The notes under the pieces: model-generated | What the model saw: the letters and a program-made list of their open reading frames with translations, nothing else | What the model was told of the DNA's origin: nothing | Databases searched by the model: none | From: Rhodospirillales bacterium 24-66-33 | GTDB taxonomy: Bacteria > Pseudomonadota > Alphaproteobacteria > Reyranellales > Reyranellaceae | Length of the DNA: 64,000 bases | Assembly: GCA_002281855.1 (NCBI GenBank) | Contig: NCHQ01000027.1 | Coordinates: 1-64,000 of the forward strand | Reading direction: 5' to 3' | Program-made: the position numbers and the translations under genes | Part shown: piece after piece, positions 31,039 through 55,268 of the stretch | How positions within the stretch are numbered: the stretch's first letter is position 1 | Layout of the letters: each line of letters opens with the position of its first letter

Positions 31039-32289
31039 GTGAGCGCACCCGTGCCGAACCGTGGCCCTGAGACGTCCGGCTTGCTGGCGGAGAGGATCGT
31101 CCTGATCCCTCCGGCGATGCGGGTGCTTGCCGCTGCGACGACCATCGTCGTGCTGGCGGCGCTCGTCTGGGCGGTCTTCGGATCGGTGCCGACGCACGTC
31201 GAGGGAAATGGTGTCGTGCTGGCCGATCGGCAGGGCAACTTCGCCATCGCCGCGACCTCCGGCGGACCGGTCATCGAAGTCCTCGTACGGCCCGGTGACG
31301 AGGTCAAGGCTGGCGCCCCGGTGGCGGTGATCGAACAAAGGCTCCTCTCGGTGCGCAGCCAGAATGCGACCGCGGAACTGCAACACCTCGAAGCCAACCT
31401 CGCCACCCTCAAGGCGGCGCACGCCAAGCAGATCGAGGCCAGCGAAGAAGGCGTGCGGCGCCAGATGGAGGCAATCGAGGAACATGTCTCCAAGAACTCG
31501 AAGCTCCGCGACCGGCTGGAAGACCTGGTGGCAAGCTATCGCAAGCTGCGCGACAAAGGCATGATCACGGAGACCCAAGTGATCGCCAAGCAGGAGCAAT
31601 ACGATCAGATCGCCTTGTCGCTGGCCGAGTCGGGCGCCAGGCGCGTCGCGGTGCAACTGGCGGCCGAGACCAAGCGCGACGACTTGCTCGAGAGGCAACG
31701 CCTGCACCAATTCGAGATCGACCTAAAGAAGGCGGAAATCGATCGCCTCAAGGCCGAGATGGCGGTCGGGACGACCGTCACGGCGCCAACCAGCGGCATC
31801 GTCCGCGAGGTACGGATCGGTATCGGTGATGTCGTGACCCCCGGCGAGGTCGTGGCGACGGTGGGACAGGGCCGCGACGGATACTTCCAACTCGTTGCCC
31901 TGCTCAAGGGCGACGCCCGCAAACGAGTCGTCGCCGGCATGGAGGCGCAGGTCGTGCCCACCAGCGTCAAGCGGCAGGAGTATGGTTCGATGAAGGGGCG
32001 CGTGGTCCGCGTCTCGGATGAGGACGTGTCGGATAGGGACGTCGACCGCATCCTGCACAATCGCCAGCTCACCCGCAGCCTGTTCGGCGGGCAGGAGGCG
32101 CTGCTCGCCCACATCGAGCTGATGCCGACCTCGAACAACGCCAGCGGCTTCCAGTGGTGGAGCGGCAACGGCCCGCCCTACAAGATCCCGTCCGGGACCG
32201 TCGCCGGCGTCGACATCATCGTCGAGCGGGTGCGCCCGATCACGCTCGTGATCCCGGCGCTGCGCAAGCTCCTCAGCATCGACGGATGA
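31039..32289 (+). CDS. NHLM-type secretion protein (HlyD-family adaptor), left set
   Basis: The 416-residue protein has a membrane helix at about 28-50 (RVLAAATTIVVLAALVWAVFG). A lipoyl half (GGPVIEVLVRPGDEVKAGAP), a long coiled coil (about 110-250) and the second half (VTAPTSGIVREVRIGIGDVV) follow. The conserved tail GFQWWSGNGPPYKIPSGT and RPITLVIPALRKLLSIDG is characteristic of NHLM bacteriocin-system secretion proteins rather than of PrtE-type adaptors. The start is GTG at 31039 without a strong ribosome-binding site. ATGA couples it to the exporter that follows. A paralogue with the same tail lies at 53967-55268. Confidence 0.88.
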   Translation: MSAPVPNRGPETSGLLAERIVLIPPAMRVLAAATTIVVLAALVWAVFGSVPTHVEGNGVVLADRQGNFAIAATSGGPVIEVLVRPGDEVKAGAPVAVIEQRLLSVRSQNATAELQHLEANLATLKAAHAKQIEASEEGVRRQMEAIEEHVSKNSKLRDRLEDLVASYRKLRDKGMITETQVIAKQEQYDQIALSLAESGARRVAVQLAAETKRDDLLERQRLHQFEIDLKKAEIDRLKAEMAVGTTVTAPTSGIVREVRIGIGDVVTPGEVVATVGQGRDGYFQLVALLKGDARKRVVAGMEAQVVPTSVKRQEYGSMKGRVVRVSDEDVSDRDVDRILHNRQLTRSLFGGQEALLAHIELMPTSNNASGFQWWSGNGPPYKIPSGTVAGVDIIVERVRPITLVIPALRKLLSIDG

Positions 32290-34067
32290 GCCAGACATCC
32301 TCGCCGAAGCCGCCGACGAAGCAATTGGACCGGCGCGCGGCGGGCCCGGGGCTGGTGGCGCGGCTGCGAGCCCGGCTCGGCAACCTTTACGGCGTCGTCG
32401 CCTTCATTGCCTGGATCAGCGTCATGCTGGTCATCCCGGGCATCATCCTGCCGGGCATGACGGCGGTGTTCGTCGACAAGATCCTGGTCAATCACTACGG
32501 CGACTGGTTGGCTCCCATCCTGCTCGGCCTCGCGGCGGCGTTCGCCCTGAACATGACGTTGCGATGGCTGCAGGGCATGGCGCTGCTACGGCTCGAGATG
32601 CGCCTGGCGCTGGAGCAGTCGGCGACGTTCCTGCAGAGCATTTTGCGCCTACCGGTCTCCTTCTTCGGGCGGCGCACCGGCGGCGACCTCGTCAGCCGCA
32701 TCGAATCCAACGACCGGGTCGCCACGCTGATTGCCGGCGACTTGGGCAACACGGCCGCGAGCTGCATGACCGCGGCCTTTCTCGGCATCGTCATGCTCTC
32801 CTACGACGTGGTACTGGCCGCGATCGTGCTGGCGAGCAGCAGCCTCAACCTGTTGCTGGTGGCATTCCTGCGCAGATCTCTGGCAGACACCGCGCTCAGC
32901 CTGCAGACCGAGCAAGGCCGGCTGTTCGGCATGTCGATCATCGGCCTCCAGGCGATCGAGGCCCTGAAGTCGAGCGCCGGAGAGAACGCTTTCTTCGTCC
33001 GCTGGACCGGACTGCATGCCCGCGTCGTCAACGCCGAGCAGCGGATGGCGGTCTACCAGCTGGCGATGAGCCAAGTACCGATCGTAATCCTCAGCCTTAC
33101 CTCGGCGGCGGTGCTGGGCGTCGGCGCCCTGCGGATCATGGACGGCCACCTGAGCGTCGGCGGTCTGGTGGCGTTCCAGGGGCTGCTGCTGAGCTTCGCC
33201 GCGCCGCTGCAGCAACTGGTCGACGTCGCCGGCAAGGTGCAGCAAGCGTCGGCCGACCTGACGCGGCTGGACGAGGTGCTTGAAAACGGGCCGGACTGGC
33301 GATTCGCCGCCACGGCCGCCGCACCAGCCGACGCGCGCGCCTCCGGCTCCGTGTCGATGCAGGGGGTCAGCTTCGGCTACGACGAAGCCCTTCCGCCGTT
33401 GATCGAAGACTTCTCGCTCGAGGTCGCGGCGGGCCAGTGGGTAGCCCTGGTCGGCGGGTCGGGCAGTGGCAAGTCGACGCTTGGGCGTCTGATCACCGGC
33501 CTCTATCGGCCCCGGTCGGGTCGCATCCTGATCGACGGCTACTCACTCCAGGACTGGGGCCGCGAGCGGCTGGCCGACATCGTCGCATCCGTCGACCAGG
33601 ATATCCGCCTGTTCGGAGGAACGGTGCGCGACAACATCACCCTGTGGGACCAGACCGTCGACAACGATCGCCTGCTGGCGGCAGCCGACGATGCCGGCCT
33701 GACGCCGATCGTGCAGGCCATTACCGGGAATTTCGAGGCGGTCATCGAGGAGGACGGGCGCAATCTCAACGGCGGCCAGCGGCAGCGCATCGAGATTGCG
33801 CGGGGCCTCGTCAGGGAGTCGGCGATCCTCGTGCTCGACGAGGCCACGGCCGCGCTCGACGCCGACAGCGAGCATCACATCCTGCAGGCGATACGCCGTC
33901 GCGGCATGACCTGCATCCTGGTCGCCCACCGGCTGAGCACCATCCGCGAATGCGACGAGATCGTCGTTCTGGATCGTGGCAAGGTGGTGGAGCGGGGAAC
34001 GCACGCGTCGCTGATGTCGAAAGCGGGCGCCTACGCACGCCTGGTCCTGGCGGAGCAAGCGGCCTGA
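32286..34067 (+). CDS. NHLM-type ABC exporter lacking the C39 peptidase domain, left set
   Basis: The start is the ATG of the ATGA overlap with the secretion-protein gene, giving 593 residues. The membrane domain begins immediately (VVAFIAWISVMLVIPGIILPGM near residue 38), where related exporters first carry about 150 residues of C39 peptidase. The nucleotide-binding domain has GGSGSGKST, the variant signature LNGGQRQR, Walker B AILVLDEATAALD and switch His in VAHRLS. It is clearly paralogous to the 723-residue exporter on the right. Without a peptidase it could export a peptide but not cut its leader. It probably pairs with the next gene product, whose start lies 2 bases beyond its stop. Confidence 0.88.
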   Translation: MSQTSSPKPPTKQLDRRAAGPGLVARLRARLGNLYGVVAFIAWISVMLVIPGIILPGMTAVFVDKILVNHYGDWLAPILLGLAAAFALNMTLRWLQGMALLRLEMRLALEQSATFLQSILRLPVSFFGRRTGGDLVSRIESNDRVATLIAGDLGNTAASCMTAAFLGIVMLSYDVVLAAIVLASSSLNLLLVAFLRRSLADTALSLQTEQGRLFGMSIIGLQAIEALKSSAGENAFFVRWTGLHARVVNAEQRMAVYQLAMSQVPIVILSLTSAAVLGVGALRIMDGHLSVGGLVAFQGLLLSFAAPLQQLVDVAGKVQQASADLTRLDEVLENGPDWRFAATAAAPADARASGSVSMQGVSFGYDEALPPLIEDFSLEVAAGQWVALVGGSGSGKSTLGRLITGLYRPRSGRILIDGYSLQDWGRERLADIVASVDQDIRLFGGTVRDNITLWDQTVDNDRLLAAADDAGLTPIVQAITGNFEAVIEEDGRNLNGGQRQRIEIARGLVRESAILVLDEATAALDADSEHHILQAIRRRGMTCILVAHRLSTIRECDEIVVLDRGKVVERGTHASLMSKAGAYARLVLAEQAA

Positions 34068-34069
34068 AC

Positions 34070-36874
34070 ATGGCAGCCACCGACCCAATCGACCGGCGAT
34101 CTCTCGACCTGGCGACGCTTGCCACGCCGGGAACGATCGGCCGGCCGGGACGGCTGTACGGCTCGGTGCGCGATTCACGGGGGCTATGCGGACGTCGCTA
34201 CTTCATTGCAGCGCTGCCGGCGGGCGCCGCCGTCTTCCCGCTCGCGGCCCCGGGCGTGGCCTTCGTGCTGATCGAGGAGGATGGCTCGCCAGACGGCCCC
34301 TGGTTTGTCGCCGGCATCCCCCCTGCGCCGTCGATCGATGCCTGGTACGGCGCGCTCCTGGCATCGCCGGGCGCAGCCTCGGCCGACTCCTCGGCGATCC
34401 CGCTCGCGGCGGGCGAGAGCCGCGCGCTGTCGAAGGATGCGACGGTGACCGCACGACAGGTGCTATGGCTGAAGGCTGACCGGCCGGCCCTCCGCTACGC
34501 CGGCCCGATCGACAGCGAGACGGCGCCGCCCCTGCCGCTGCTGGTATTGGCCGACCAGGTAACGGCGACGGCGACGGTCGAGGCCACGGTCCAGGCTTTC
34601 ACAACCGAGGCCATGTCGGGCCCCGTTCCAGAACTCCTTGCCGCGCCGCTGGTCGCCATCGCGGCGCAACTCGGCCGGCACCTGCTGGCCTACGATGCCA
34701 TGTTGGAAGCGCGGCCCACCGAACGGCGCGCCCGGGACGAAGCCGGTGTCCGCACGGCAATGCGGCGGCTGCGCGCGGCAGCGTCCCTGCGTCCGGTAGC
34801 GGCGCCCGTCACCGACCAGCCGGGCGATCCGCTGTCCCGGGCACTGGCCGAGATCGCTCGGCACGAGGGGATCAAGCTCCGAGATGGCGGCCGGGCGACG
34901 CCCACGGCAACCCTGCTCGAACGCCTCGAGACGGTGGGCGACGCCAGCGGCTTCAGGGTTTGCGAGGTCGCCCTCGAGGCCGGTTGGTGGAAGAAGGAAA
35001 GCGCGCCCTTGATCGCGCGAACGGAGACCGACGACCAACCGTGCGCCGTACTGTGGCGACGCGGCCGATGGCGGCTGGTCGAGGCGGTTGGCGGCCGGGA
35101 GACAGTGGTCGATGCCGCCGTCGCCGCCCACCTCGCGCCGGTCGCTCTGACGATCCACCCGACCCTTCCCGAACAGCCGACGCCAATGGAGGTCGGCCGA
35201 TTCGCCTTCTTCGGCACGCGCCGGGACATTCGCCATATCTTCTTCGGAGCGGTCGGCTCAACCCTGTCGGCCTTCCTGATCCCCGTAGCAACCGGCGCCG
35301 TGGTCGGCGTCGCGGTGCCCGACGCGCGAACCTCGCTGCTGCTCGACATGATGATCCTCCTGGTCGCGGCGGCGATCGGCAATTCAGGCTTCCATGTCGT
35401 GCGCGCCATTTCGATGATCCGGCTGAGCTCGACCGTGGACCGCCGCCTGCAGCCGGCGGTGTGGGATCGCGTGCTACGGCTGAACACGTCTTTCTTCCGT
35501 CGCTACACGGCGGGCGACCTGGCTGCCCGCATCATGGGCATCGACACCGTCAGGCGCATGTTGTCGGGCCACAACCTCAATCTGCTGATCGGCAGCACGT
35601 TCGCGCTGACGAGCCTCGGAATCATGCTGATCTACGACGCTGCCATGACCGCCTTCGCGGTCGGCTACGCGCTGGTCGCGGCGGTCGTCCTGTTCTTGCA
35701 GGGACGCCGGAAGATGCGGCTGGACGCCGTCGTGCTCGCCAACAAGGGCCTCGTGACCGGCCTGCTGATGCAGATCCTGGGCGGCATCGCCAAGCTGCGG
35801 GTCGCTGCCGCGGAGGAGCGCGCCTTCGCGCGCTGGTCGAACGCCTTCACCGAGCAGCGGGCAGCCAGCGGCAGATCGGGTGCCGTCCGCGCCTGGGACG
35901 TCGTGATCTCCACCAGCCTGCCGATCCTCGGCACGCTGGGCGTACTGGCCATCGCCGGTGGCGGCTCCCATCCGATCGATGTCGCCGCCTTCGCCGCCTT
36001 CAACGGCGCCTTTGCCCAGTTCACCGCGGCGATCGTCAACCTCGCCACGGTAATGAACGCCGCGATCGGCGTCGGACCGTTGCTGGCCCGGGTGCGCCCG
36101 ATCTTCGATGCGCCGATCGAGGTCGACGGGCGGCGCAGCGATCCGGGCCGCCTGAGCGGCCAGTTCGCCGTGCGCAATCTGTGGTTCCGCTACGCCGAGG
36201 ACGCACCGTGGACGTTGCAAGGCATCGACTTCGAGGTCCGCCCCGGCGCCAGCATCGCCTTCGTGGGCACGTCCGGCTCCGGCAAGTCGACGCTGCTGCG
36301 GCTGCTGCTGGGCTTCGAGCAGCCGCAGCGCGGCGGCATCTTCTATGACGGCAAGGATCTCCGCACGCTCGAGTTGCGCGGCGTGCGGCGCCAGGTCGGC
36401 ACCGTCCTCGAATCGTCGGGCCTCGTCCCCGGGACGCTCTACGAGAACATCTCGATGGGCGGCTGGTCGACGCGCGAGCAGGTGATGGAGGCGGCCCGGC
36501 TGGCCGGTCTCGAGGACGACCTCGCCGGCATGCCGCACGGGCTCGACACCATGGTCACCGAGGGCGGCGGCCAATTGTCGGGCGGTCAGCGCCAGCGCCT
36601 GATGATCGCCCGGGCGTTGGTCGACCGGCCACGGCTGATCATGTTCGACGAGGCGACCAGCGCTCTCGACAACCGCACGCAGGCGATTGTCGGCCGCAGC
36701 CTTGAGGGGATGAACGCGACCCGCCTCATCATCGCCCACCGGCTGAGTACGATCCGCTCGGCCGACCACATCATCGTGCTGGAGGCCGGGCGGATCGTGC
36801 AGCAGGGCAGCTTCGACGCGCTGGTCGGCGAGGAAGGACCGTTTCTGCGCCTCGTCCGCCGGCAGATTCTGTGA
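34070..36874 (+). CDS. NHLM-type long ABC exporter (ATPase/permease), left set
   Basis: I start at the ATG at 34070, 2 bases after the previous stop; the longer frame is a shadow. The 934 residues comprise an N-terminal family-specific domain (about 1-370, containing WWKKESAPLIARTE and AVLWRRGRWRLVE), a six-helix permease (about 375-665) and an ATPase domain. The ATPase has GTSGSGKST, VLESSGLVPGTLYENI, LSGGQRQR, Walker B RLIMFDEATSALDNRTQ and AHRLST. Catalytic Glu is present. This is the second ABC subunit found in NHLM clusters. A close paralogue is encoded at 48992-51802. Confidence 0.88.
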   Translation: MAATDPIDRRSLDLATLATPGTIGRPGRLYGSVRDSRGLCGRRYFIAALPAGAAVFPLAAPGVAFVLIEEDGSPDGPWFVAGIPPAPSIDAWYGALLASPGAASADSSAIPLAAGESRALSKDATVTARQVLWLKADRPALRYAGPIDSETAPPLPLLVLADQVTATATVEATVQAFTTEAMSGPVPELLAAPLVAIAAQLGRHLLAYDAMLEARPTERRARDEAGVRTAMRRLRAAASLRPVAAPVTDQPGDPLSRALAEIARHEGIKLRDGGRATPTATLLERLETVGDASGFRVCEVALEAGWWKKESAPLIARTETDDQPCAVLWRRGRWRLVEAVGGRETVVDAAVAAHLAPVALTIHPTLPEQPTPMEVGRFAFFGTRRDIRHIFFGAVGSTLSAFLIPVATGAVVGVAVPDARTSLLLDMMILLVAAAIGNSGFHVVRAISMIRLSSTVDRRLQPAVWDRVLRLNTSFFRRYTAGDLAARIMGIDTVRRMLSGHNLNLLIGSTFALTSLGIMLIYDAAMTAFAVGYALVAAVVLFLQGRRKMRLDAVVLANKGLVTGLLMQILGGIAKLRVAAAEERAFARWSNAFTEQRAASGRSGAVRAWDVVISTSLPILGTLGVLAIAGGGSHPIDVAAFAAFNGAFAQFTAAIVNLATVMNAAIGVGPLLARVRPIFDAPIEVDGRRSDPGRLSGQFAVRNLWFRYAEDAPWTLQGIDFEVRPGASIAFVGTSGSGKSTLLRLLLGFEQPQRGGIFYDGKDLRTLELRGVRRQVGTVLESSGLVPGTLYENISMGGWSTREQVMEAARLAGLEDDLAGMPHGLDTMVTEGGGQLSGGQRQRLMIARALVDRPRLIMFDEATSALDNRTQAIVGRSLEGMNATRLIIAHRLSTIRSADHIIVLEAGRIVQQGSFDALVGEEGPFLRLVRRQIL

Positions 36875-36887
36875 ACCGGCGCTCGGG

Positions 36888-38795: not shown

Positions 38796-38803
38796 GCGAA
38801 CGC

Positions 38804-39913
38804 TCAGGCCGCCAGCACGGGCAGGGACGAGAGGATGATCTTCTCCTCACCGAAGTTGCGCACAACTTCGCCGCAACCGATACGGCCTTCGTTGAGGACA
38901 AGGCGGCCGCTCGCGATGTTGGCGTCGCTGCGCCGCTTGTTCACCCAGACGCTGCCCTCGCCCCCCACGTGCTCGCGGCCGAGTTCCCGGTAGCGCAGTT
39001 CCCTGCTGCGCTCGACGTCGTCGTGCGGGATGCAGCGCGCGTAGCGCGGTTCGATCGACTCGCAGCGATACCCCCGGCCGCGCAGGCGATGGAAAAGGTC
39101 CATGTCGTCGTAGCCCCATCCGACGTGCGCCTCGTCCATGCCGCCGACATCGAGGAAGGTCGATTTGTAGAGGGCGTATCGCCCGACGCACCCTTCGTCG
39201 AAGGCCACCATGAACTCGTCGCCTACCAGCCGGCAGCCGATCAGGACGTTGTCGGGCTCCACCTGCTCGGCGAGGTAGGAGGCAAAACCGCGCCCGGTGA
39301 AATTGTCGGCATCGACGACGCAGACGATGTCGCCGCTGGCGAGGCGAAGCGACATGTTGCGGGAATGGGTGGCGTGGAAGTGCGTAGGCTCGCTAGTAAA
39401 GTAGTAGCGCAGCCGGCCGCTGGCGATCTCGTCGCCGAGATTCCGTTGGACCCAGTCGCCAAGGCCATCGCTCGAATTGTAGTCGAGCAGCACGAACTCG
39501 AGGTCGGGATAGTCGCTATTGTCGGAAATGTTTTGCGGCAAGGTCTCGCGCACATGGTGCAGCCGGTTGCGGCTGGTGGTGCAGAGCGAGATCCGGCGCG
39601 ACGGCCGTCCCCCGATTCGCAGGCAATGCTCCAACCAGTGCGGGCCGACCTTCACCGCCCCCCAGAAGAGGCGGCGGCCGCGGCCGTCGAGGCCCTGCGA
39701 CACAAAGCGAGCGACGGTCGCCCCGGCGGCGTCGACGATGAGCAGCGCCAAGCCGTCGCGCTTCCAGGAGCCGGCCAAGCCATAAGGGTCGGGCTCGACG
39801 GCGACCGTCCCATCCGGCTGGCCGACGACACGCGCGACCAAACTACCGCCAGCATCCAGCAACTCGAATGCCTGTTGCAAGTGGACGCCATCGTCTTGAA
39901 GAAGAAACATCAT
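38804..39913 (-). CDS. GT-A glycosyltransferase (galactosyltransferase-like C-terminus)
   Basis: I use the ATG at 39913 (MMFLLQDDGVHLQQ); a GTG 21 bases upstream is also open. The N-terminal 110 residues are a separate beta-rich part. The GT-A domain has RISLCTTSRNRLHHVRETLP, VLLDYNSSDGLGDWV, the metal site IVCVVDADNFTGRGFA and then VGWGYDDMDLFHRLRGRGYR, the W-G-x-x-D-x-D motif of galactosyltransferase C-terminal domains. The domain is very close to the N-terminal half of the divergent gene at 40152. Cytoplasmic; acceptor unknown. Confidence 0.82.
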   Translation of the reverse strand: MMFLLQDDGVHLQQAFELLDAGGSLVARVVGQPDGTVAVEPDPYGLAGSWKRDGLALLIVDAAGATVARFVSQGLDGRGRRLFWGAVKVGPHWLEHCLRIGGRPSRRISLCTTSRNRLHHVRETLPQNISDNSDYPDLEFVLLDYNSSDGLGDWVQRNLGDEIASGRLRYYFTSEPTHFHATHSRNMSLRLASGDIVCVVDADNFTGRGFASYLAEQVEPDNVLIGCRLVGDEFMVAFDEGCVGRYALYKSTFLDVGGMDEAHVGWGYDDMDLFHRLRGRGYRCESIEPRYARCIPHDDVERSRELRYRELGREHVGGEGSVWVNKRRSDANIASGRLVLNEGRIGCGEVVRNFGEEKIILSSLPVLAA

Positions 39914-40151
39914 GGCCGTTTCAGTCCCACCCAATATTTTTTCGCGTCACCGGGAATTCCAGTTCCCCATGCTGCCGAACATTGACCGTAGCTAGTGTCG
40001 CCGTCGAGTATAGCTGCCTCTGTTGACGGGACATTTTCCTGCGCCGACAATGAGAGATGACCGGAGAATACATGCTTAGCATCGGCGATTTTCAGCGCGC
40101 TTGTGTTTCCCTGAAAAGTTGTCGCACCGGCGATCCGGCTTCGTGAACGGC

Positions 40152-42997: not shown

Positions 42998-43029
42998 CCA
43001 CCACCCCGCACCTGTAGCGGCGGATCGAG

Positions 43030-44202: not shown

Positions 44203-44212
44203 CTCGAAACGC

Positions 44213-46183
<1,971 letters not shown>

Positions 46184-46237
46184 CGTCGTTGTCGGCTCGG
46201 CCGGATAGCAAGGACGATCATCTTGTAACGAGTCTCA

Positions 46238-47608
46238 GTGGCGCAGCAAGAATTATACCCCCATGATGTTGGCGCCGCCGCGATCGCCTCGGGACCGCGC
46301 GTACCACGAGGGACTTTCGCGTTGCCATCCTGCCTGCTGATCGAGTGCTGCCCCTATCATTGGGAAATCTTCCCGGCATGGGTGAGCCTGCTTGGCGAGA
46401 GCGGCTTCACGGTCGACATTGCCTGTCCCGACACACCGGGCCATCTCGAGACCGTGGCGATGCTCGGCAAGCAGCGACTGCCAATCGAACGGCTATGGGA
46501 CATCCCGTTCCATCGCTACGATCTGGTGGTGCTCGGCACCCTCATGCATGAGGGGTACAACGACGTCGACAAATTCCAGCCGCTGCCCGGGCTCGACCTG
46601 ATCAACAGGATCGGATGCCCGTCGATCAGCATCGTGCACGAACCCCTCCAGTGGAACCTGCGGTGCCCGGAGGAAACCTACGATGGCCGCCATTCCAAGG
46701 GGTGGGGCACCCTCAACCTGTTTCGCGACCACACTTTCTATTGGCAGGGCAGGCGTCGCCGCAGGCGCCAGTGGTCGCGTGAAGGCAACCACCTGGTGCT
46801 GTGGGAGGACGGCCGGCGGCTGACCTTCTTCAGCACCGATCGCGGCACAACGTGGCGCGGGCCCAACGGCATGACCCTGCGCCGGCGGACGGCCCTACGC
46901 ACCGACCTGAAGCGCCACACGCGTTCCGGCCGGCATGCCATCGTCACCCTGTCGCGCCAGGCCGCCGAGCACGTCCGGCCGCGATGCCCCGATGCCGCCT
47001 GGATCGTGCCTTTCTCGAGACCGGATGGACCGCCCCCGGCGCCGCGCGACGCCTTCGTCTTCGCAGGCTCCATCGACTATGACCGGAAGGCCATCGGGTC
47101 CCTGCTGAGCGCGTGCGCGGCGCTGGCAGCGGACGAAAGCGTGTTCATCGTTGGCGGCAGCCGCTACGCCAACCTCGCGGACGATCCGAACGTCGGTAGG
47201 CTGATGCGCGACCTCGCCGACTGCGGCCTGGCCGACAAGGTCAGATTCAGCGGCTACCTGCCATACGGCGAGTTCCTCGAACGCCTGCGCCAGGGCCGCT
47301 TCCTGCTTCCGCTGGTCGACGACCGCGTTTTCGGGGGGGACTACAAAGTCCGGACGCCGGCTGCAGTCCCCCTCTCACTCGGACTCGGGATTCCGATGAT
47401 CGTCAACGAGGCGATCGCCCGACGCTTCGGCCTCGACTTCATGGTGTGCTACCAGGGCGACGATCTCGCCTCTGGCTTGACTGAAGCGCGAGCGCTAGAC
47501 GACGCAGCCCAGGCCAGCATGCTGGAACGGACGCGACAAGCCGCCGATCGCCTGCAGGCGCACAATCGGGACACGATCGCCGGCATCTTGCGCCGTATCC
47601 TGGCGTGA
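46238..47608 (+). CDS. GT-B-like glycosyltransferase
   Basis: GTG start at 46238 without a good ribosome-binding site; 456 residues. The N-terminal half begins LPSCLLIECCPYHWEIFPAW and contains YDLVVLGTLMHEGYNDVDK. The C-terminal half has AFVFAGSIDYDRKAIGSLL, KVRFSGYLPYGEFLERLRQ and VPLSLGLGIPMIVNEA, the pattern of GT-B donor domains. The central Arg-rich block (about 168-175) is unusual. It is divergent from the carbamoyltransferase with only 54 bases between starts, so the two probably share a promoter region. Confidence 0.7.
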   Translation: MAQQELYPHDVGAAAIASGPRVPRGTFALPSCLLIECCPYHWEIFPAWVSLLGESGFTVDIACPDTPGHLETVAMLGKQRLPIERLWDIPFHRYDLVVLGTLMHEGYNDVDKFQPLPGLDLINRIGCPSISIVHEPLQWNLRCPEETYDGRHSKGWGTLNLFRDHTFYWQGRRRRRRQWSREGNHLVLWEDGRRLTFFSTDRGTTWRGPNGMTLRRRTALRTDLKRHTRSGRHAIVTLSRQAAEHVRPRCPDAAWIVPFSRPDGPPPAPRDAFVFAGSIDYDRKAIGSLLSACAALAADESVFIVGGSRYANLADDPNVGRLMRDLADCGLADKVRFSGYLPYGEFLERLRQGRFLLPLVDDRVFGGDYKVRTPAAVPLSLGLGIPMIVNEAIARRFGLDFMVCYQGDDLASGLTEARALDDAAQASMLERTRQAADRLQAHNRDTIAGILRRILA

Positions 47609-47648
47609 GGTCCTCAGCAGCGCGGCGACAAGAGCGAGGATCGACGGC

Positions 47649-48611
47649 ATGGACAAGCGCAGGCTGGGGAACAGCGACCTCGAGTTCCGGCCGATCGCCC
47701 TGGGCGGCCTCGTCTTCGGTTGGACCGCCGACGAGACCATGTCACATCGCCTGCTCGATGCCTTCGTCGATGCTGGCGGCTCCTTGGTGGAAACCGCGGA
47801 GAGCTACACTTTCTGGGCGCCGCAGAGTGCGTGGGGACGATCGGAAGAGGTGATCGGCAACTGGCTGCGCAGGAACCCGGGCAAACGGGACAAGGTGCTG
47901 ATCGCCACGAAGTGCACGGAATTGTCGCGGACACGGCTGCGGGAATCGGTCGAGGCCTCGCTCGCCCGCCTGAACGTCGACTGCATCGACCTCTTCCAGT
48001 CGCATCGCGACGACACGGCGGTACCGCTGGAAGAAACACTGTCCGCCTATGGCGAGTTGATCCGGGAAGGTAAGATCCGCTGCATCGGCGCGTCGAACCA
48101 CGACGCCGAACGGCTGGCCGAGGCGGACAGGGTCGCCCGCACCAACGACCTGCCGCGCTACCAGAGCCTGCAACCGCACTACAACCTCCTGGAACGTTCT
48201 CTGTTCGAGGGAGCGCTGGAGGAACAGTGCCTGCGCCTCGGCCTCGGCGTCCTGCCCTACTATCCCCTCGCGGCCGGCTTCCTCACCGGCAAGTACCGAT
48301 CGGAGGCGGACTACGACAAGAGCGTGCGAGGCGCCAGCCAGACCGTGCGCAAGTACATGACCCCGCGCGGTCTCGCCGTACTCGACGCCTTACACGCCGT
48401 CGCGCACAAGCACGGCACGAGCAGCGCCACCGTGGCGCTTGCCTGGCTGCTTCACCGGCGGTCGGTCACCGCTCCGATTGCGAGCGCCACGACCCTCGGG
48501 CAACTGGAAGCATTGTTGGCGGCGCCCTGCCTCGACCTCGACGCCGAGTCGCTGGCTGCCCTCGACGCGGCCAGTGCCGCGCCCCCTCAGCCGCCATCAC
48601 TCGTCGGCTGA
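47649..48611 (+). CDS. Aldo/keto reductase family protein
   Basis: 320 residues, an ATG start 40 bases after the glycosyltransferase. Typical blocks are RRLGNSDLEFRPIALGGL, the lysine strand VLIATKC, the histidine in IDLFQSHRDDTAVPLEETL, IGASNHD and LPYYPLAAGFLTGKYR. At the catalytic Asp/Tyr position the sequence reads VETAESYTF where the family usually has D-T-A-x-x-Y, so the catalytic Asp appears to be Glu. These NADPH enzymes reduce carbonyls, for example on keto-sugars. The gene overlaps the 3' end of the Nif11-like peptide gene by 15 bases, convergently. Confidence 0.85.
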   Translation: MDKRRLGNSDLEFRPIALGGLVFGWTADETMSHRLLDAFVDAGGSLVETAESYTFWAPQSAWGRSEEVIGNWLRRNPGKRDKVLIATKCTELSRTRLRESVEASLARLNVDCIDLFQSHRDDTAVPLEETLSAYGELIREGKIRCIGASNHDAERLAEADRVARTNDLPRYQSLQPHYNLLERSLFEGALEEQCLRLGLGVLPYYPLAAGFLTGKYRSEADYDKSVRGASQTVRKYMTPRGLAVLDALHAVAHKHGTSSATVALAWLLHRRSVTAPIASATTLGQLEALLAAPCLDLDAESLAALDAASAAPPQPPSLVG

Positions 48612-48947
48612 GCGACGCGGCGGGCCGAGCGACCAGTAGCGCCCGTGATCGAAGTCAAACTGGCCCGCGTCCCTCACCACGAAGATCGCCCAGTACCAGC
48701 ACGGGCCGCCGGCCGGGCCATCGAGCTCGACATCCTGCAGTTCCCTGCCAACGGCGCGCGACCGCGCGCGCGTGACCGCCTTCGCCTCTTCCACCGTGAA
48801 GCGGTAGCCCCGCGACGCCGCGAACGCCACTGCGCTCGGCAGCAGCATGCCTTCGAGGTGATCGAGCTGCGCCCGTTCGGCTTCCGCCCGCAATGTCATG
48901 TCCGACCTGAGGTCAGCCGCGTAGCGCTCCATCTCGGCGAGACTCAT
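48597..48947 (-). CDS. Nif11-like leader peptide; putative exported peptide precursor
   Basis: The 116-residue protein has AGGAGAAG 7 bases before its ATG. Residues 1-81 look like a Nif11-type leader: MSLAEMERYAADLRSDMTLR, then AFAASRGYRFTVEEAKA and an acidic stretch L-Q-D-V-E-L-D-G-P-A-G-G ending in a double glycine at 80-81. The remaining 35 residues begin PCWYWAIFVVRDAGQFDFDH and contain two further aromatic residues (Y104, W105); only one Cys (83) occurs. Nif11 and NHLP leaders are the precursors handled by NHLM exporters. It is the last gene of the right exporter operon, 44 bases after the long exporter. Alternatively it is a small non-processed protein of the same fold. Confidence 0.68.
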   Translation of the reverse strand: MSLAEMERYAADLRSDMTLRAEAERAQLDHLEGMLLPSAVAFAASRGYRFTVEEAKAVTRARSRAVGRELQDVELDGPAGGPCWYWAIFVVRDAGQFDFDHGRYWSLGPPRRSADE

Positions 48948-48991
48948 CGGCTCTTCTCCTGCCGCATACCTTACCCTTTCCGGCCCCGCGC

Positions 48992-51802
48992 CTACAGCAA
49001 TTGCCGCCGCACCAGGCGGCGGAACGCGCCCTCATGGCCGACCAGTTCCTCGTAGGTGCCGGTCTCGACGACCCGACCGCTCTCGAGCACGACGATGCGG
49101 TCGGCGTCGCGTATCGTACTCAGCCGGTGGGCGATGATGATCCGCGTGGCATTCATGGCCGCAAGGCTGCGGCCGACGATGGCCTGCGTGCGATTGTCCA
49201 ACGCACTGGTCGCCTGGTCGAAGAAGATCAGGCGTGGCCGTCCGACCAGCGCGCGGGCGATCATCACGCGCTGCCGCTGGCCGCCCGACAGCTGTCCCCC
49301 TCCCTCGGCGATCAGCGTGTCGAGGCCGAGCGGCATGCCGGCGATGTCGGCCTCGAGGCCGGCGAGGCGGGTGGCCTCCACGACCTCATCGCGCGTGATC
49401 GCGGCGCTGCCGGCGATGTTCTCAAGGATCGTACCGGGCACCAGCCCGGCCGTCTCCAGCACGGTGCCGATCTGGCCGCGCACGCGCCGCAGGTCCAGCG
49501 TCTCGAGGTCCCTGTCGTCGTAGAAGACGCCGCCGCGTTCGGGCGTCTCGAAACCCAGCAGCAGGCGCAGCAAGGTGGACTTGCCCGAGCCGGACGTACC
49601 GACGATCGCCACGCACTCGCCTGGCCGCGCCTCGAAGTCGACGCCGTCGATTGTCCACGGGCCATCCTGTGAGTAGCGAAAGGACAGGTTGCGGACGGCG
49701 ATGTGCCCGGCCAGCGGGCCCGGATCGATGCGCCGGCTATCGACTTCGAGCGGCGCCTCGAATACCGGCCGGATGCGCGCGAACAGCGGCACCGCCGCCA
49801 GCGCCTGGTTAAGGGCGGAGGTGAGGTTGAGGATGGCGCCGGTGAACTGCGCAAAAGCGCTGTTGAAGGCCGCGAACGCCGCGACCTCCAGCAGCCGCCC
49901 GCTGCCCGCGATGGCGAAGACGCACAGCGTTCCGACGATCGGCAGAGTGCTCGAGACGACGATCTGCCACGAGCCGACCTGCCCGGAGCGGCCGTCCATC
50001 GCGCGTTGGTCGGCGAACGCGCTCGACCAGCGTGAGAACGCGCGCATCTCGGCGGCGGCAACGCGCAGCTTGGCGATACCGCCCAGGATTTCCATCAGCA
50101 TGCCGGTGACGATGCCCTTGCGCTCGAGCACCAGCCGGTCCAGTTGCATCTTGCGGCGACCGAGGAAGAACAGAAAGGCCGCGGCGACCACCGTGTAGGC
50201 GACCGCGAAGGCCGCCAGCGTGGCATCGTAGACCAGCATGATGCCGAGGTTGGCGACAGAGAAGACTCCGCCGATCAAGGCATTGAGGGTCTGTCCGGCG
50301 AAGATGCGGCGGATCGTGTCGATGCCAAGGATGCGCAGCGTCAGGTCGCCCACCGAGTAGCCCCGGAAGAACGACGTCTTGAGACGCATCACCCGATCCC
50401 AGATCGCCGGTTGCAGGCGTCGGTCGACGTACGAGCCGAGGCGCGTCATGGCGACGGCGCGCACGACCTGGAAGCCGATGTTCCCGATCGACGCGGCGAC
50501 CAGCAGGATCATCATGTCGGCCAGCAGCGACGTCCGGCCGTCGGGCACCGCGAAGCCCAGTACCGCGCCGGTGGTCACCGGGACCAGCAGGCTCGAGAGC
50601 ACGGCCGCGCCGGCACCGACGATCAGTCGCGCGATGTCGCCGCGCGCTCCGAATACAGTGAAGCGCCAGACGTCGCGCATCGTGGTCCGCTCGGGCAGGA
50701 CCGGGTAGATCATGTATCCGCGCGGCTCCAGGCCGGCTGCCGCAGCGCCATCGACAACGGTCTCCCCGCTGGCCTCTGGATCGATGATGCGCCAGCGCCG
50801 CCGCCGCCACACGAGGGCCCGCGGACGCCCACTGTTGGCGTCGAGCCCGAGGAACGACGGTCCCTCCTCCTTCCACCAGTCGCCGTCGAGCCTGATGGGG
50901 CGGAAGCGAAAGCCGCTCGCGCTGCCGAAACGTTCGAGCCTGTCGAGCAGGAACGCGCCCGCATCGTCGTCCTGGGGACGCCGGACCTGGAAGCCCTCCT
51001 GCTCGCCGATGACCGCCAGCGCGCCGGCGAGCGCACCGGCTGTCCCTTCCGCGTCGGGAGCGATCTTGGGTCGCCGCAGGGCAGCGGCGTCGCTCAGGCG
51101 CTGGATCGCCTGCGCGACCTCGGCCTCGTCTTGCACAAGGCGGTGGCCGGCGCGCGACGTCCTCGCCGCCTCGTCCCGCACGAGGATGGCGGCGAGCCGC
51201 GTCGCCAGCAACAGGGACGGCGCGCCCAGCGATTGCGGCGCATGTCGCTCAAGTAAGGCGGCCGAGGTAAGCACCCGGACCTCCGCGTCTTCGACCACCT
51301 CGGCCAAGACCTGCGAGGAGAGAACCAGGAGCGGCTCGGCGGTCGACGGCGGGCTGGTCTCGGTCGCGGGGTAGCGCAGCACGGCAGAGTCGGCCTGCAA
51401 CCAGACGAGGCCCCGCGACGAGACCACGGCGCCAGGTGCCACGGTGCGACTTTCCCCGCCGGCCATCAGCACGGCGGCGCCATCGCTGCGCGCCAGACCC
51501 GGCCACGACAGCAAAGCCGCATACCAGGCATCGACGCCTGCGGCTTCGATGGGTCTCGGCGCCAGCAACGGGCCCGCCGCCGTCGGCTCGTGCCCGATCA
51601 GCAGGAACGACACGCCGTCGGCGGCGAGCGCAAACACGGCCACTCCCTCTGCCAGTTCGGCCACGAAGGAACGGCGGCCGGGCGAGCCGTCGCCGCCCAG
51701 CACCGAGGCGTAGAGCCGCGCCGGCCGCGCGAGCCGGCATGGCCGGTCAAGCGTCGCGAGGTCGAGAGCCGCGGCTCCGACGGAAAGCTGGGAAGGCTTC
51801 AT
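48992..51802 (-). CDS. NHLM-type long ABC exporter, right set, with Walker B Glu replaced by Gln
   Basis: 936 residues: N-terminal domain (about 1-372, with WWKEEGPSFLGLDANSGRPR and ALVWRRRRWRIID), six-helix permease and ATPase with GTSGSGKST, VLETAGLVPGTILENIAG and LSGGQRQR. Walker B reads RLIFFDQATSALDNRTQ: the catalytic Glu is Gln (codon CAG, residue 863), while the left-hand paralogue has Glu at the same place. ABC domains with this change bind ATP but usually hydrolyse it poorly; in heterodimeric exporters one degenerate site is common. Its start overlaps the 723-residue exporter stop by 4 bases, and the Nif11-like gene follows. Confidence 0.88.
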   Translation of the reverse strand: MKPSQLSVGAAALDLATLDRPCRLARPARLYASVLGGDGSPGRRSFVAELAEGVAVFALAADGVSFLLIGHEPTAAGPLLAPRPIEAAGVDAWYAALLSWPGLARSDGAAVLMAGGESRTVAPGAVVSSRGLVWLQADSAVLRYPATETSPPSTAEPLLVLSSQVLAEVVEDAEVRVLTSAALLERHAPQSLGAPSLLLATRLAAILVRDEAARTSRAGHRLVQDEAEVAQAIQRLSDAAALRRPKIAPDAEGTAGALAGALAVIGEQEGFQVRRPQDDDAGAFLLDRLERFGSASGFRFRPIRLDGDWWKEEGPSFLGLDANSGRPRALVWRRRRWRIIDPEASGETVVDGAAAAGLEPRGYMIYPVLPERTTMRDVWRFTVFGARGDIARLIVGAGAAVLSSLLVPVTTGAVLGFAVPDGRTSLLADMMILLVAASIGNIGFQVVRAVAMTRLGSYVDRRLQPAIWDRVMRLKTSFFRGYSVGDLTLRILGIDTIRRIFAGQTLNALIGGVFSVANLGIMLVYDATLAAFAVAYTVVAAAFLFFLGRRKMQLDRLVLERKGIVTGMLMEILGGIAKLRVAAAEMRAFSRWSSAFADQRAMDGRSGQVGSWQIVVSSTLPIVGTLCVFAIAGSGRLLEVAAFAAFNSAFAQFTGAILNLTSALNQALAAVPLFARIRPVFEAPLEVDSRRIDPGPLAGHIAVRNLSFRYSQDGPWTIDGVDFEARPGECVAIVGTSGSGKSTLLRLLLGFETPERGGVFYDDRDLETLDLRRVRGQIGTVLETAGLVPGTILENIAGSAAITRDEVVEATRLAGLEADIAGMPLGLDTLIAEGGGQLSGGQRQRVMIARALVGRPRLIFFDQATSALDNRTQAIVGRSLAAMNATRIIIAHRLSTIRDADRIVVLESGRVVETGTYEELVGHEGAFRRLVRRQLL

Positions 51803-53970
51803 GCGCCAAGCTCCGCCTGGATCAACCGGGCATAGGCACCGTCGCGCGCCATCAGCGTGCCGTGGTTGCCGCGCTCCACGACCTTGCCCCGTTCCAGCAC
51901 GATGATCTCGTCGCAGTCACGGATCGTGCTAAGCCGATGGGCGACGAGGATGCAGGTCATCCCGCGACGCCGCACCGCCGTCAGGATCTCGTGTTCGCTC
52001 GCGGAATCGAGCGCAGCGGTCGCCTCGTCGAGCACCAGGATAGCCGGCTCTCGCACGAGGGCGCGCGCGATCTCGACGCGCTGGCGCTGACCACCATTGA
52101 GGTTTCGGCCGCCCTCCTCGATGCTGCCGCGCAAATTGCCCGGCAGGTTCTGAATAGCGGGCATCAGGCCCGCGTCTTCGACCGCCGCCACCAGCCGGGC
52201 GTGTTCCACCGAGTCGTCCCACAGCGTGATGTTGTCGCGCACCATGCCGCTGAACAGTCGGATGTCCTGGTCGACCGACGCGACGACGTTGGAGAGGCGC
52301 TCTCGGCCCCAGTCGCGCAGGCTGTAGCCGTCGATCAGTATCTCTCCCGACTGAGCCTCGAACAGCCCAGTGATCAGTTTGCCCAACGTTGACTTGCCGC
52401 TGCCCGAATCGCCCACCAGCGCCACCCACTGGCCGGCCTCCGCCTCGAGCTCGAAGTTCTCGATCAGCGGCGGTCCGACGCTGCTGTAGCCAAAGCTGAC
52501 CCCCTTGAGCGAGAGACGGCCGATCGCCCGCGTCTCGGGGGGCGCCGAGGGAGGCTCGAGGAATCGCCAGTCGCGGGGATGCTGCAGGACATCGTCGAGC
52601 CGCGACAGGTCGGCCGAGGCCTGCTGCACCTTGCCGGCCACGCCGACCAGTTCCTGGACCGGGGCAGAAAAACTCAGCAGGAGCCCCTGGAACGCGACCA
52701 GCGCGCCGATAGTCAGGTGCCCATCGATGACGCGCAGCGCGCCGACGCCCAGCACGGCCGCGGCGGTCAGGCTGAGCAGCATGGCTGGCAACAGCGAAAT
52801 GGCCCCCTGGTAGATCGCGAGCTTCTGCTCGGAGTTGATGGCGCGCGCGTGGAAGCCGCCCCACTTCACGAAGAAGTCGTCCTCGCCGGCCGTCGCCTTC
52901 AGCGTTTCAATCGACTGCAGGCCGACGGCCGACGTCGAGAACAGCCGGCCCTGCTCGGTCTGAAGGCGCAGCGCAATGTCGGAAAGCGAGCGGCGCAGGA
53001 GTTGCAGCCCGACGATGTTGACGGCCGCCCCGCCCAGCACGATGGCCGACAGAACTCCGTCGTAGAAGATCATCACCCCGCCAAGGAAAGCCGCCGTCAG
53101 GCAGCCGGCCAACGTGCTGCCGAGGTCGCGCGCCAGCAGGGTCGCCACACGGTCGTTCGCCTCGACCCGGCTGGCGAGATCGCCGGTGAAACGCTGCGCA
53201 AAAAACGAGATCGGCAGGCTGAGCACGTGCCAGGCGAACTTCGCCGACTGCTCGAGCGCCAGCCGCAGTTCGAGGCGCAGCAGCGCCGCTCCCAGCAGCC
53301 AACGCAGGGCCACGTTGACCACGACCGTGGCCGCCAGCCCGACCAGCATCGGGCCGAGCCAGCCCTCGAACTGGCGAATCAGGATGTTGTCGACGAACAC
53401 GGCGGTCATGCCGGGCAGTATCAGGCCAGGCAGCACCAGCATCAGGCTGACCCACGCCACGAAGCCGATCGCGCCGTCGAGGCCCTTCAGCCGGCTTCCG
53501 AGCTTGGACGCGAGGCCCGGTCCGCCGCCGCTTCGCTTGAAGCCCGCCCGTTTCTTGAATTCCAGAGCCGTGCCGTTGAAGCGCTCGGCAAACTCCTTGC
53601 GGCCGATCTCACGCGGCCCGGTCGCCGGATCGTTGAGGTAGACCCTGTCGCCCACCACGCCCTCGACGACGACGTACTCGTCGACATTCATCAGGACGAT
53701 CAGCGGCAGCGGGCGCGCCAACACCCGGCCGGCATCGGTGATGGCGACCGTCGCCTCGAGACCATAGCCGTCGGCTGCGCGCACGAGTTCCGCTGGCCGG
53801 CTGCCTTCGCGGGACACCCCGCAAGCGACACGTAGCGCCTCGAGCGGTACGCGCCGACCGTGATAGCCCAGCACAATGCCGAGCGCGGCAGCGCCGGATT
53901 CCACCATCTCCATCTGGAAGACGGTCGGTGTCCGAACCCTCCGCCTCCAAAAGCTGAGTCGGACGGTCAT
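51799..53970 (-). CDS. NHLM-type ABC exporter with a degenerate C39 peptidase domain, right set
   Basis: 723 residues. The N-terminal 135 residues are C39-like: TPTVFQMEMVESGAAALGIV, YHGRRVPLEALRVACGVSRE and VVVEGVVGDRVYLNDPATGP. Active members read Q-x-x-x-x-E-C-G and N-H-F-V-V; here the Cys position is Ser25 and the His position is Tyr99, while Gln19 and Asp114 remain. The domain can no longer be a cysteine protease but may still hold a leader. The permease covers about 165-450; the ATPase has GDSGSGKST, LNGGQRQR, AILVLDEATAALD and AHRLST. It is coupled by ATGA overlaps on both sides. Confidence 0.88.
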   Translation of the reverse strand: MTVRLSFWRRRVRTPTVFQMEMVESGAAALGIVLGYHGRRVPLEALRVACGVSREGSRPAELVRAADGYGLEATVAITDAGRVLARPLPLIVLMNVDEYVVVEGVVGDRVYLNDPATGPREIGRKEFAERFNGTALEFKKRAGFKRSGGGPGLASKLGSRLKGLDGAIGFVAWVSLMLVLPGLILPGMTAVFVDNILIRQFEGWLGPMLVGLAATVVVNVALRWLLGAALLRLELRLALEQSAKFAWHVLSLPISFFAQRFTGDLASRVEANDRVATLLARDLGSTLAGCLTAAFLGGVMIFYDGVLSAIVLGGAAVNIVGLQLLRRSLSDIALRLQTEQGRLFSTSAVGLQSIETLKATAGEDDFFVKWGGFHARAINSEQKLAIYQGAISLLPAMLLSLTAAAVLGVGALRVIDGHLTIGALVAFQGLLLSFSAPVQELVGVAGKVQQASADLSRLDDVLQHPRDWRFLEPPSAPPETRAIGRLSLKGVSFGYSSVGPPLIENFELEAEAGQWVALVGDSGSGKSTLGKLITGLFEAQSGEILIDGYSLRDWGRERLSNVVASVDQDIRLFSGMVRDNITLWDDSVEHARLVAAVEDAGLMPAIQNLPGNLRGSIEEGGRNLNGGQRQRVEIARALVREPAILVLDEATAALDSASEHEILTAVRRRGMTCILVAHRLSTIRDCDEIIVLERGKVVERGNHGTLMARDGAYARLIQAELGA

Positions 53971-55268
53971 CCCTCGATGCTGAGCAATTTGCGCAGCGCC
54001 GGCACCACCAAGGTGATGGGACGGACCCTCTCAACGATGATCTCCGCCGTCGCGACAGAACCGGCGGTGACGCGGTAGGGCGGGCCCGACCCGCTCCACC
54101 ATTCGAAGCCGCTGGGATTGTCCTTCGTCGGAACCAGCTCGACGTAGGCCAACAGTGCCGGCTCGCCGCCGAACAGGTTCCGCGTCAGCTCGTTGTTGTG
54201 CACGATCTGCTCGACGTGCTCGATCGACACGTCTTCGTCGGAAACGGCGGTGACCCGGCCTCGCATCGAGCCATACTCTTCCTTCTTGACGCTGTCGGGC
54301 ACGATGTGCGCTTCCATCCCGGGCGCCGCCCGCTTGCGCGTCTTACCCCGCAGCAGAACCATGACCTGGTAGTAGCTCTGCTGGTCCGGCCCGACGGTGC
54401 CGACCACCGCCCCCGCACCTGCGACGCTACCGCGGCCGAGCCGAATTTCACGAATGATGCCGCTGATGGGCGCCCGTACGAACGAACCGACCTCCATCTC
54501 CACCCGCAAGCGGTCGACCTCAGCCTTCTTGAGGTCGATCTCTGCCTGCTTCTGGCGCTCGATGTCGGCTAGGTTGTAGCGCTTGGTGGCTGCCGCCAGC
54601 TCGATCTCCACCTTGCGCGACCGCGCGTTGGCCAGCTCGAGGACGGTCAGGTCGTACTGTTCCTGGCGGGAAATGAACTCGCTCTGGGAGATCATGCCCC
54701 TGGCGCGCAGGCCGCGGTAGGCGTCGACCAGTTCTTGCAGCCGGCCGCGGCGAACCTCGTTGGCTGTGACCTGCTCCTCGACCGCCGCCCGCTGGCGTTC
54801 AGCCGCCTCGTCGCTGCTGGCGACCTGCGCGGCATTCGCCACCTTCAGCAGCTCGAGATTCGCCTCAAGCCGCTCCACCTCTGCCAGGGCATTTTCGATC
54901 TGGGTCAGCACCAGCTTCTGCTCGATGATGGCAATGGCCTGCCCGGCGACCACGCGGGTGCCGGGCTTGACCAGCACCTCGACCACCGGCCCAGACCGGA
55001 TGGCAGCGATGGAAAAATTTCCCTCCTGGTCGGAAAGCACCACGCCGCGTCCGGTCACGCGGGTCGGGATCGAGCCGAACACACCCCATGTCAGCGCCGC
55101 CAGGCAAACAACGGCGGTCGAGGCAGCGAGCCAGCGCGTTGCCGGCGGAATGACCTTGATGCGCTGATCGGACTGATCGGAAGCCCCGATGCCTTTGAGC
55201 GTCGGCTCTCGGAACCGGCCAGCTGTGCCCTTGCCGCTCGCCGAACGCAGCACCGCCGAGTCGGTCAT
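53967..55268 (-). CDS. NHLM-type secretion protein (HlyD-family adaptor), right set
   Basis: 433 residues with a longer cytoplasmic N-terminus than the left paralogue and a membrane helix at about 48-68 (LAASTAVVCLAALTWGVFG). A lipoyl half (SGPVVEVLVKPGTRVVAGQA), a coiled coil (about 125-270), the second half (VRAPISGIIREIRLGRGSVA) and the tail GFEWWSGSGPPYRVTAGS plus RPITLVVPALRKLLSIEG follow. It is the first gene of the right exporter operon and overlaps the next start by 4 bases. Between its start and the divergent binding-protein gene at 55493 lie 224 bases that should hold both promoters. Confidence 0.88.
   Translation of the reverse strand: MTDSAVLRSASGKGTAGRFREPTLKGIGASDQSDQRIKVIPPATRWLAASTAVVCLAALTWGVFGSIPTRVTGRGVVLSDQEGNFSIAAIRSGPVVEVLVKPGTRVVAGQAIAIIEQKLVLTQIENALAEVERLEANLELLKVANAAQVASSDEAAERQRAAVEEQVTANEVRRGRLQELVDAYRGLRARGMISQSEFISRQEQYDLTVLELANARSRKVEIELAAATKRYNLADIERQKQAEIDLKKAEVDRLRVEMEVGSFVRAPISGIIREIRLGRGSVAGAGAVVGTVGPDQQSYYQVMVLLRGKTRKRAAPGMEAHIVPDSVKKEEYGSMRGRVTAVSDEDVSIEHVEQIVHNNELTRNLFGGEPALLAYVELVPTKDNPSGFEWWSGSGPPYRVTAGSVATAEIIVERVRPITLVVPALRKLLSIEG

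What the first reader, a model, noticed from the sequence alone, without database searches (positions are those of the whole stretch)
31039..55268. Twin NHLM export sets enclosing a tailoring cluster and a Nif11-like peptide: candidate undescribed peptide system
Seen: two complete sets of secretion protein, ABC exporter and long ABC exporter (31039-36874 on plus, 55268-48992 on minus) face each other around glycosyltransferases, a GT-radical SAM fusion, a dioxygenase, a carbamoyltransferase, an aldo/keto reductase, a peptide-type binding protein and one Nif11-like gene. Known: NHLM exporters serve Nif11- or NHLP-leader peptides, often RiPPs. Inference: the locus makes and exports a modified, possibly glycosylated or carbamoylated peptide. 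Two full exporter sets in one locus suggest two products, or two export steps such as product and surface partner.
Basis: partly seen in the sequence, partly recalled or inferred. Interest (0 to 1): 0.86.

Follow-up and report, generated by a model that had tools for sequence, protein, structure and literature searches.

The report
Peptide-export locus without leader-cutting protease
A Reyranella bacterium carries a rare cluster that seems to build and export a decorated, conserved small peptide, but both of its peptide exporters have lost the protease that normally cuts off the peptide's leader, so the product probably leaves the cell in an unusual form.

Summary
A Nif11-type precursor gene (48597-48947, minus strand) sits in the operon of one NHLM exporter set. 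A second set faces it across a tailoring cluster: glycosyltransferases, a GT-radical SAM fusion, a PhyH oxygenase, a NovN/GdmN-type carbamoyltransferase and an aldo/keto reductase. The locus is Reyranella, and a sister genome has it almost gene for gene.

The export sets are not "complete". Set 1's ABC1 lacks the C39 leader peptidase outright. Set 2's C39 has lost catalytic Cys (to Ser) and His (to Glu, Ala or Arg) in all three genomes that carry it. The other Reyranella NHLM exporters checked keep both. No C39 with an intact active site was found elsewhere in this nearly complete genome. The precursor changed in step: its -4 leader residue is Pro instead of Val/Leu, and Pro follows the Gly-Gly. 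Its 28-residue core (PCWYW..GQFDFDHGRYWS) is more conserved than its leader.

Best reading: a Nif11 precursor, probably glycosylated and carbamoylated, exported through NHLM machinery that no longer cuts at Gly-Gly. The dead peptidases are shown by sequence; peptide modification is inferred. New variant of a known kind. Two linked but separate products is the main rival.

The parts
31039..32289 (+). Set 1 HlyD-type NHLP secretion protein
   Evidence: TIGR03794 230 bits, above cut-off
32286..34067 (+). Set 1 ABC1 exporter, C39 peptidase domain absent
   Evidence: TIGR03796 matches only from profile position 128; 593 aa against 723 aa for set 2; same shortening in G013 and G020
34064..36874 (+). 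Set 1 ABC2 exporter (long, about 936 aa)
   Evidence: TIGR03797 754 bits
36888..38795 (-). Family-5 solute-binding protein; possibly a bystander from a family common in the genus
   Evidence: PF00496; 60%-identical paralogues across Reyranella
38804..39913 (-). GT2/GT7C glycosyltransferase, paralogue of the GT half of the fusion
   Evidence: Pfam; 41% identity to the fusion's GT
40101..42122 (+). Glycosyltransferase-radical SAM-SPASM/twitch fusion
   Evidence: Pfam GT2/7C + Radical_SAM + SPASM; CxxxCxxC and four C-terminal Cys invariant in 4 genomes
42119..42997 (+). PhyH-family 2OG/Fe(II) oxygenase
   Evidence: PF05721 E=2.5e-17; EctD/SnoK are weak sequence relatives of known structure
43030..44202 (+). 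GT2 glycosyltransferase
   Evidence: PF00535
44213..46183 (-). Carbamoyltransferase of NovN/GdmN type
   Evidence: PF02543, PF16861; full-length match to NovN E=4.9e-158
46238..47608 (+). GT4-like glycosyltransferase (start uncertain)
   Evidence: weak GT4 match; orthologues in G013, G006
47649..48611 (+). Aldo/keto reductase
   Evidence: PF00248
48597..48947 (-). Nif11-type precursor: leader 48705-48947 (residues 1-81), core 48600-48704
   Evidence: PF07862 E=0.0014, TIGR03798 match ends at residue 81; conserved core in G013, G006
48992..51802 (-). Set 2 ABC2 exporter
   Evidence: TIGR03797 773 bits
51799..53970 (-). Set 2 ABC1 exporter with degenerate C39 domain (about 53551-53970; Cys position is Ser25, His position is Glu98, Asp114 kept)
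53967..55268 (-). Set 2 HlyD-type NHLP secretion protein
   Evidence: TIGR03794 216 bits
55493..56467 (+). Sugar-type periplasmic binding protein, divergent from set 2
   Evidence: PF13407; syntenic in G013 and G006
56560..57411 (+). SAM methyltransferase
   Evidence: PF13489; syntenic in G013

Best explanation
The locus makes one Nif11-leader precursor with a conserved 28-residue core. The tailoring enzymes (glycosyltransferases, GT-radical SAM fusion, oxygenase, carbamoyltransferase, reductase) probably decorate it with a modified sugar. NHLM set 2 probably recognises the Nif11 leader and exports the product without cutting at Gly-Gly, because its C39 domain is catalytically dead; set 1, with no C39 domain, is a second outlet for the same or a related decorated product. 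Any leader removal would need another protease, or the leader stays on. Shown from sequence: gene content, dead and missing C39 domains, matching changes at the cleavage site, core conservation. Inferred: that the peptide is the substrate of the tailoring enzymes, the chemistry, and export of an uncut product.
For: Set 2 C39 Cys to Ser and His to Glu/Ala/Arg in window, G013 and G006; Cys, His and Asp kept in six other Reyranella NHLM exporters and in nearly all sampled class relatives. C39 absent from set 1 in window, G013, G020. No active C39 elsewhere in this 99.8%-complete genome: the only other C39 match is a T1SS-like domain without the Cys. Precursor changed in step: -4 Pro in all three versus Val/Leu in 8 of 9 other Reyranella leaders with a Gly-Gly or Ala-Gly end (the ninth has Ala), and Pro right after Gly-Gly; LahT150 needs a suitable -4 residue (Lys and Asp abolish cleavage; PMC6363468). 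C39 domain under relaxed constraint only in the dead exporters. Core dN is about 0.44-0.70 of leader dN in three pairs. No other Nif11 and no NHLP precursor found in the genome. Synteny of precursor, set 2 and tailoring genes in three genomes. NovN/GdmN-type carbamoyltransferase.
Against: No direct evidence that any tailoring enzyme acts on the peptide; no RRE domain was recognised by Pfam in the scanned proteins. G020's contig has set 1 and tailoring genes with no Nif11 found, though the contig ends inside the locus and the MAG is 81% complete. [quoted passage not shown] -4 Pro and Pro at P1' were not among the variants described in the parts of the paper read. Only three genomes carry the core.
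Confidence: 0.42

Rival explanations
1. Two linked but separate products: the tailoring genes make a decorated oligosaccharide or small glycosylated metabolite exported by the C39-less set 1, while set 2 handles the Nif11 peptide.
For: G020 links C39-less set 1 to GT-radical SAM, PhyH, GT2 and a carbamoyltransferase with no Nif11 found; G006 has Nif11 and set 2 with no set 1 nearby. Decoration genes vary between genomes: sulfotransferase, sulfatase, SGNH-like proteins, asparagine-synthase-like protein, extra carbamoyltransferase. In G089 a NHLM exporter with a dead C39 lies beside polyketide/fatty-acid synthase genes, suggesting such exporters can carry non-peptides.
Against: G006 keeps the whole tailoring cluster with set 2 and Nif11 but without set 1 at that place. 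Set 2 too has lost leader cleavage.
Confidence: 0.33
2. The Nif11 product is still cut at Gly-Gly, by a non-C39 protease, and is an ordinary modified RiPP.
For: Gly-Gly, Leu-7 and Leu-12 are kept in all three precursors; two-step and other leader proteases encoded outside the cluster are known in RiPPs (PMC10885120).
Against: No protease gene was recognised in the locus; Pro at -4 and at P1' are unfavourable for the known recognition mode (inference).
Confidence: 0.15
3. An ordinary exopolysaccharide or lipopolysaccharide locus that happens to neighbour a peptide exporter.
For: Three or four glycosyltransferases and variable decoration enzymes.
Against: No flippase, polymerase, priming transferase or nucleotide-sugar synthesis gene was recognised among the main genes of 31-57 kb; no gene-for-gene match to a characterised locus was found in the papers searched.
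Confidence: 0.07
4. The exporters are decaying and the locus is on its way out.
For: C39 lost twice by different routes; relaxed constraint on the C39 domain.
Against: Membrane and ATPase domains are under purifying selection (dN/dS 0.07-0.25), ATPase motifs intact, no stop codons, core and enzymes conserved.
Confidence: 0.03

Closest known systems
NHLM/NHLP export system with N11P (Nif11) precursors, Haft et al. 2010 (PMC2887384)
   Same: Three-gene HlyD + ABC1 + ABC2 set beside a Nif11-leader peptide with Gly-Gly
   Different: Both ABC1 proteins lack leader-peptidase activity by sequence; leader -4 is Pro; tailoring enzymes are of glycan and carbamoyl type, no LanM or cyclodehydratase recognised
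C39-like domain (CLD) exporters such as HlyB (PMC8277102, PMC6363468)
   Same: N-terminal C39 domain without the catalytic Cys, kept in place, thought to bind rather than cut cargo
   Different: HlyB keeps the His and carries large RTX cargo without Gly-Gly; here His is lost as well, the family is NHLM, and the candidate cargo is a 116-residue Nif11 peptide
Glycocins (sublancin type; features from general knowledge)
   Same: Peptide precursor, GT2-type glycosyltransferases, ABC exporter
   Different: Core has one Cys, so no nested disulfides; radical SAM fusion, carbamoyltransferase and oxygenase are extra; exporter protease is dead
Novobiocin/geldanamycin O-carbamoyltransferases NovN and GdmN
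   Same: Full-length sequence match of 44213-46183
   Different: Acceptor unknown here

Membership tests
NHLM exporter (TIGR03794/03796/03797) | Set 2: all three proteins above curated cut-offs | tested here: met
   216, 883 and 773 bits against 156, 853 and 709
NHLM exporter (TIGR03794/03796/03797) | Set 1: all three proteins above curated cut-offs | tested here: not met
   HlyD and ABC2 met, ABC1 683 against 853
Peptidase-containing ABC transporter (active C39) | Catalytic Cys and His in the C39 domain | tested here: not met
   Domain absent in set 1; Ser and Glu in set 2; Ser/Ala and Ser/Arg in G013 and G006
C39-like domain (HlyB-type) exporter | C39 domain without catalytic Cys | tested here: met
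   Set 2 over Pfam C39 cut-off, 87 bits, Cys replaced
C39-like domain (HlyB-type) exporter | Large RTX cargo | tested here: not met
   No RTX cargo next to set 2; candidate cargo is 116 aa
Nif11-leader (N11P) RiPP precursor | Nif11 leader domain over curated score | tested here: inconclusive
   19.3 bits against 23.8 (Pfam) and 32.3 (TIGR03798); supported by leader homologues
Nif11-leader (N11P) RiPP precursor | Gly-Gly at leader end with variable core | tested here: met
   Gly80-Gly81; leader shared, cores differ across the genus
Nif11-leader (N11P) RiPP precursor | Hydrophobic Val/Leu/Ile at -4 for C39 recognition | tested here: not met
   Pro in all three
RiPP | Peptide is post-translationally modified | not testable with these tools
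   Needs mass spectrometry
Glycocin | Two nested disulfides in the core | tested here: not met
   One Cys in the core
Polysaccharide locus (Wzx/Wzy or ABC type) | Flippase/polymerase, priming transferase, sugar-nucleotide genes | tested here: not met
   None recognised among the genes scanned in 31-57 kb

The most novel reading that the evidence does not exclude
A lineage-specific system in which NHLM exporters have been turned into non-cutting secretion machines that deliver a whole, glycosylated and carbamoylated Nif11 protein, leader included, with sugar chemistry set by a glycosyltransferase-radical SAM fusion enzyme not found outside Reyranella in the collections searched.
Probability: 0.25. 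Interest if true: 0.78.

Novelty: new variant of a known kind. Interest (0 to 1): 0.56.

Why it matters
Gly-Gly leader cleavage by C39 is the textbook last step for Nif11 and NHLP peptides. A locus where both exporters have lost it, by two different routes, and where the precursor's cleavage site changed in step, is a natural test of whether a Nif11 leader can serve as a lasting export tag. It would also add a glycan-decorated class to the Nif11 peptides and give a role to a glycosyltransferase-radical SAM fusion.

Tried and rejected
AlphaFold of the GT-radical SAM fusion with four sequences failed (pLDDT 39.7), so no fold search was run. The precursor model (pLDDT 69) gives a helical leader and a poorly modelled core; not used as evidence beyond that. 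A scan for other Gly-Gly peptides in the locus gave only chance-like ORFs besides the known precursor. NHLP hits in this genome sit in 218-228 aa frames and look like true nitrile hydratases, not precursors. G416's apparently C39-less ABC1 is probably a frameshift: a C39 piece lies just upstream. The family-5 binding protein was first taken as cluster-specific but has 60% paralogues genus-wide. G031's GT2/7C array is linked to a different ABC exporter. Searches of the paper library found no description of this locus.

Full report
Setting. The window lies in a 6.12 Mb, 54-contig genome of 99.8% completeness. Public records holding the closest copies of the GT-radical SAM gene are Reyranella MAGs, so the genus is Reyranella.

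Observation check. Set 1 runs 31039-36874 on plus; set 2 runs 55268-48992 on minus and is followed, about 45 bases later, by the Nif11-like gene 48947-48597 on the same strand, so that gene looks like the last one of the set 2 operon. The gene is divergent: Nif11 19.3 bits and leader_Nif11 19.3 bits, below cut-offs. Its reality rests on homology: 13 of 101 searched genomes match at E<=0.001, mostly over residues 1 to about 84 only, rhizobial plasmid proteins annotated as Nif11-like precursors match the same part, and dN/dS across three genomes is 0.19-0.38.

Precursor. Leader residues 1-81 end in Gly-Gly; the rest is the core. In the window, G013 and G006 the core reads PCWYW(A/S)..., then GQFDFDHGRYWS(L/V)GP, nearly unchanged, and core dN is lower than leader dN in all three pairs. 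Other Reyranella leaders carry unrelated cores. No other Nif11 gene and no NHLP precursor was found in this genome (its NHLP hits lie in 218-228 aa frames that look like nitrile hydratases).

Exporters. Set 1 ABC1 has 593 residues against 723 in set 2; the missing part is the C39 domain, and it is missing in G013 and in G020 contig C114 too. Set 2 keeps a C39 domain above Pfam's cut-off, but the nucleophile Cys is Ser in window, G013 and G006, and the catalytic His is Glu, Ala and Arg; the Asp stays. Six other Reyranella NHLM exporters keep Cys, His and Asp. Among about 30 further loci sampled from the class, two others have lost the Cys (G089, Ser and Gly; G074, Ser with His kept) and one looked C39-less but is probably a frameshift. 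Dead C39 domains in this family are thus uncommon but not unique. In a tree of ABC1 proteins the set 1 and set 2 lineages are separate, fully supported clades, and an exporter with an active C39 (G051) groups with them in an incompletely supported fork, so cleavage was probably lost twice. C39 identity falls 8 to 21 points below that of the membrane domain between dead exporters, but runs from 5 points below to 14 above between active ones: constraint on the domain has relaxed, though dN/dS stays under 1. The only other C39 match in this genome is a T1SS-like domain lacking the Cys.

Cleavage site. LahT150 recognises Leu-12, Leu-7 and a Val, Leu or Ile at -4; Lys or Asp at -4 abolish cutting (PMC6363468). 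The three precursors here have Leu-12 and Leu-7 but Pro at -4, and Pro as the first core residue. Of nine other Reyranella leaders ending in Gly-Gly or Ala-Gly, eight have Val or Leu at -4 and one has Ala. Pro at these two places is not described in the passages read, so a block of cleavage is inference. Protease and cleavage site have changed together.

Tailoring genes. The carbamoyltransferase aligns over its full length with NovN and GdmN. The fusion protein has a CxxxCxxC radical SAM motif and four further invariant Cys, fitting a single extra cluster (inference). It was found full-length only in four Reyranella genomes; the 85,000-genome scan used two short patterns, so distant forms could be missed. 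The gene set varies between genomes: a methyltransferase lies between the GT4-like gene and the reductase in G013 and G006 but not in the window; G006 adds a second carbamoyltransferase, sulfotransferase, sulfatase, 2-hydroxyacid dehydrogenase and SGNH-like protein; G020 adds SGNH-like proteins and an asparagine-synthase-like protein (SGNH by eye).

Co-occurrence. G013 has the locus almost gene for gene over two contigs. G006 has tailoring genes, Nif11 and set 2, no set 1 at that place. G020 has set 1 and tailoring genes, with the contig ending in PhyH and no such Nif11 found. Many other Reyranella NHLM sets lack these tailoring genes.

Mechanism. Nif11 precursor, set 2 and tailoring genes travel together in three genomes, so modification of the peptide is the favoured inference. 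With cleavage lost in both exporters, export of an uncut or otherwise cut product is favoured. The comparison is with HlyB-type C39-like domains, which bind cargo without cutting. That comparison is about how it may work, not membership: HlyB keeps its His and carries large RTX cargo. The main rival is that the sugar-type genes make a separate product for set 1; G020 and, by analogy, G089 with its synthase genes speak for it.

Verdict. New variant of a known kind. The sequence facts are firm; the product and its path are not.

Noticed in passing
29993-30069 (-): tRNA-Arg (CCT) 1 kb from the start of set 1, perhaps the edge of an inserted island.
   Followed up: no
27800-27854: A perfect (CA)27.5 dinucleotide repeat, unusual for a bacterium.
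   Followed up: no
6357-17884: A type I secretion-like pair (14738-17884) near a 1050-aa DUF4214 protein and a 1166-aa protein with three GT4 stretches, possibly a second glycosylated export system.
   Followed up: partly
L109/L110 (G089): Another alphaproteobacterial NHLM exporter with a dead C39 (Ser, Gly) lies beside polyketide/fatty-acid synthase genes.
   Followed up: partly
47608-47649; L012:12343-13011; L014:10056-10694: A methyltransferase gene between the GT4-like gene and the reductase in G013 and G006 is missing from the window.
   Followed up: yes
L014:12973-13893 (G006): A 306-aa gene of no recognised Pfam family lies between Nif11 and ABC2 on the opposite strand; it looks like a CmcJ-type oxygenase by eye.
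   Followed up: no
L049 (G058): Two Nif11-type genes with a B12-radical-SAM-like protein (by eye) and an NHLM set with active C39, a more usual RiPP cluster in the same genus.
   Followed up: no
L017 (G031): Tandem GT2/7C domains in a 1141-aa frame beside a different ABC exporter.
   Followed up: no
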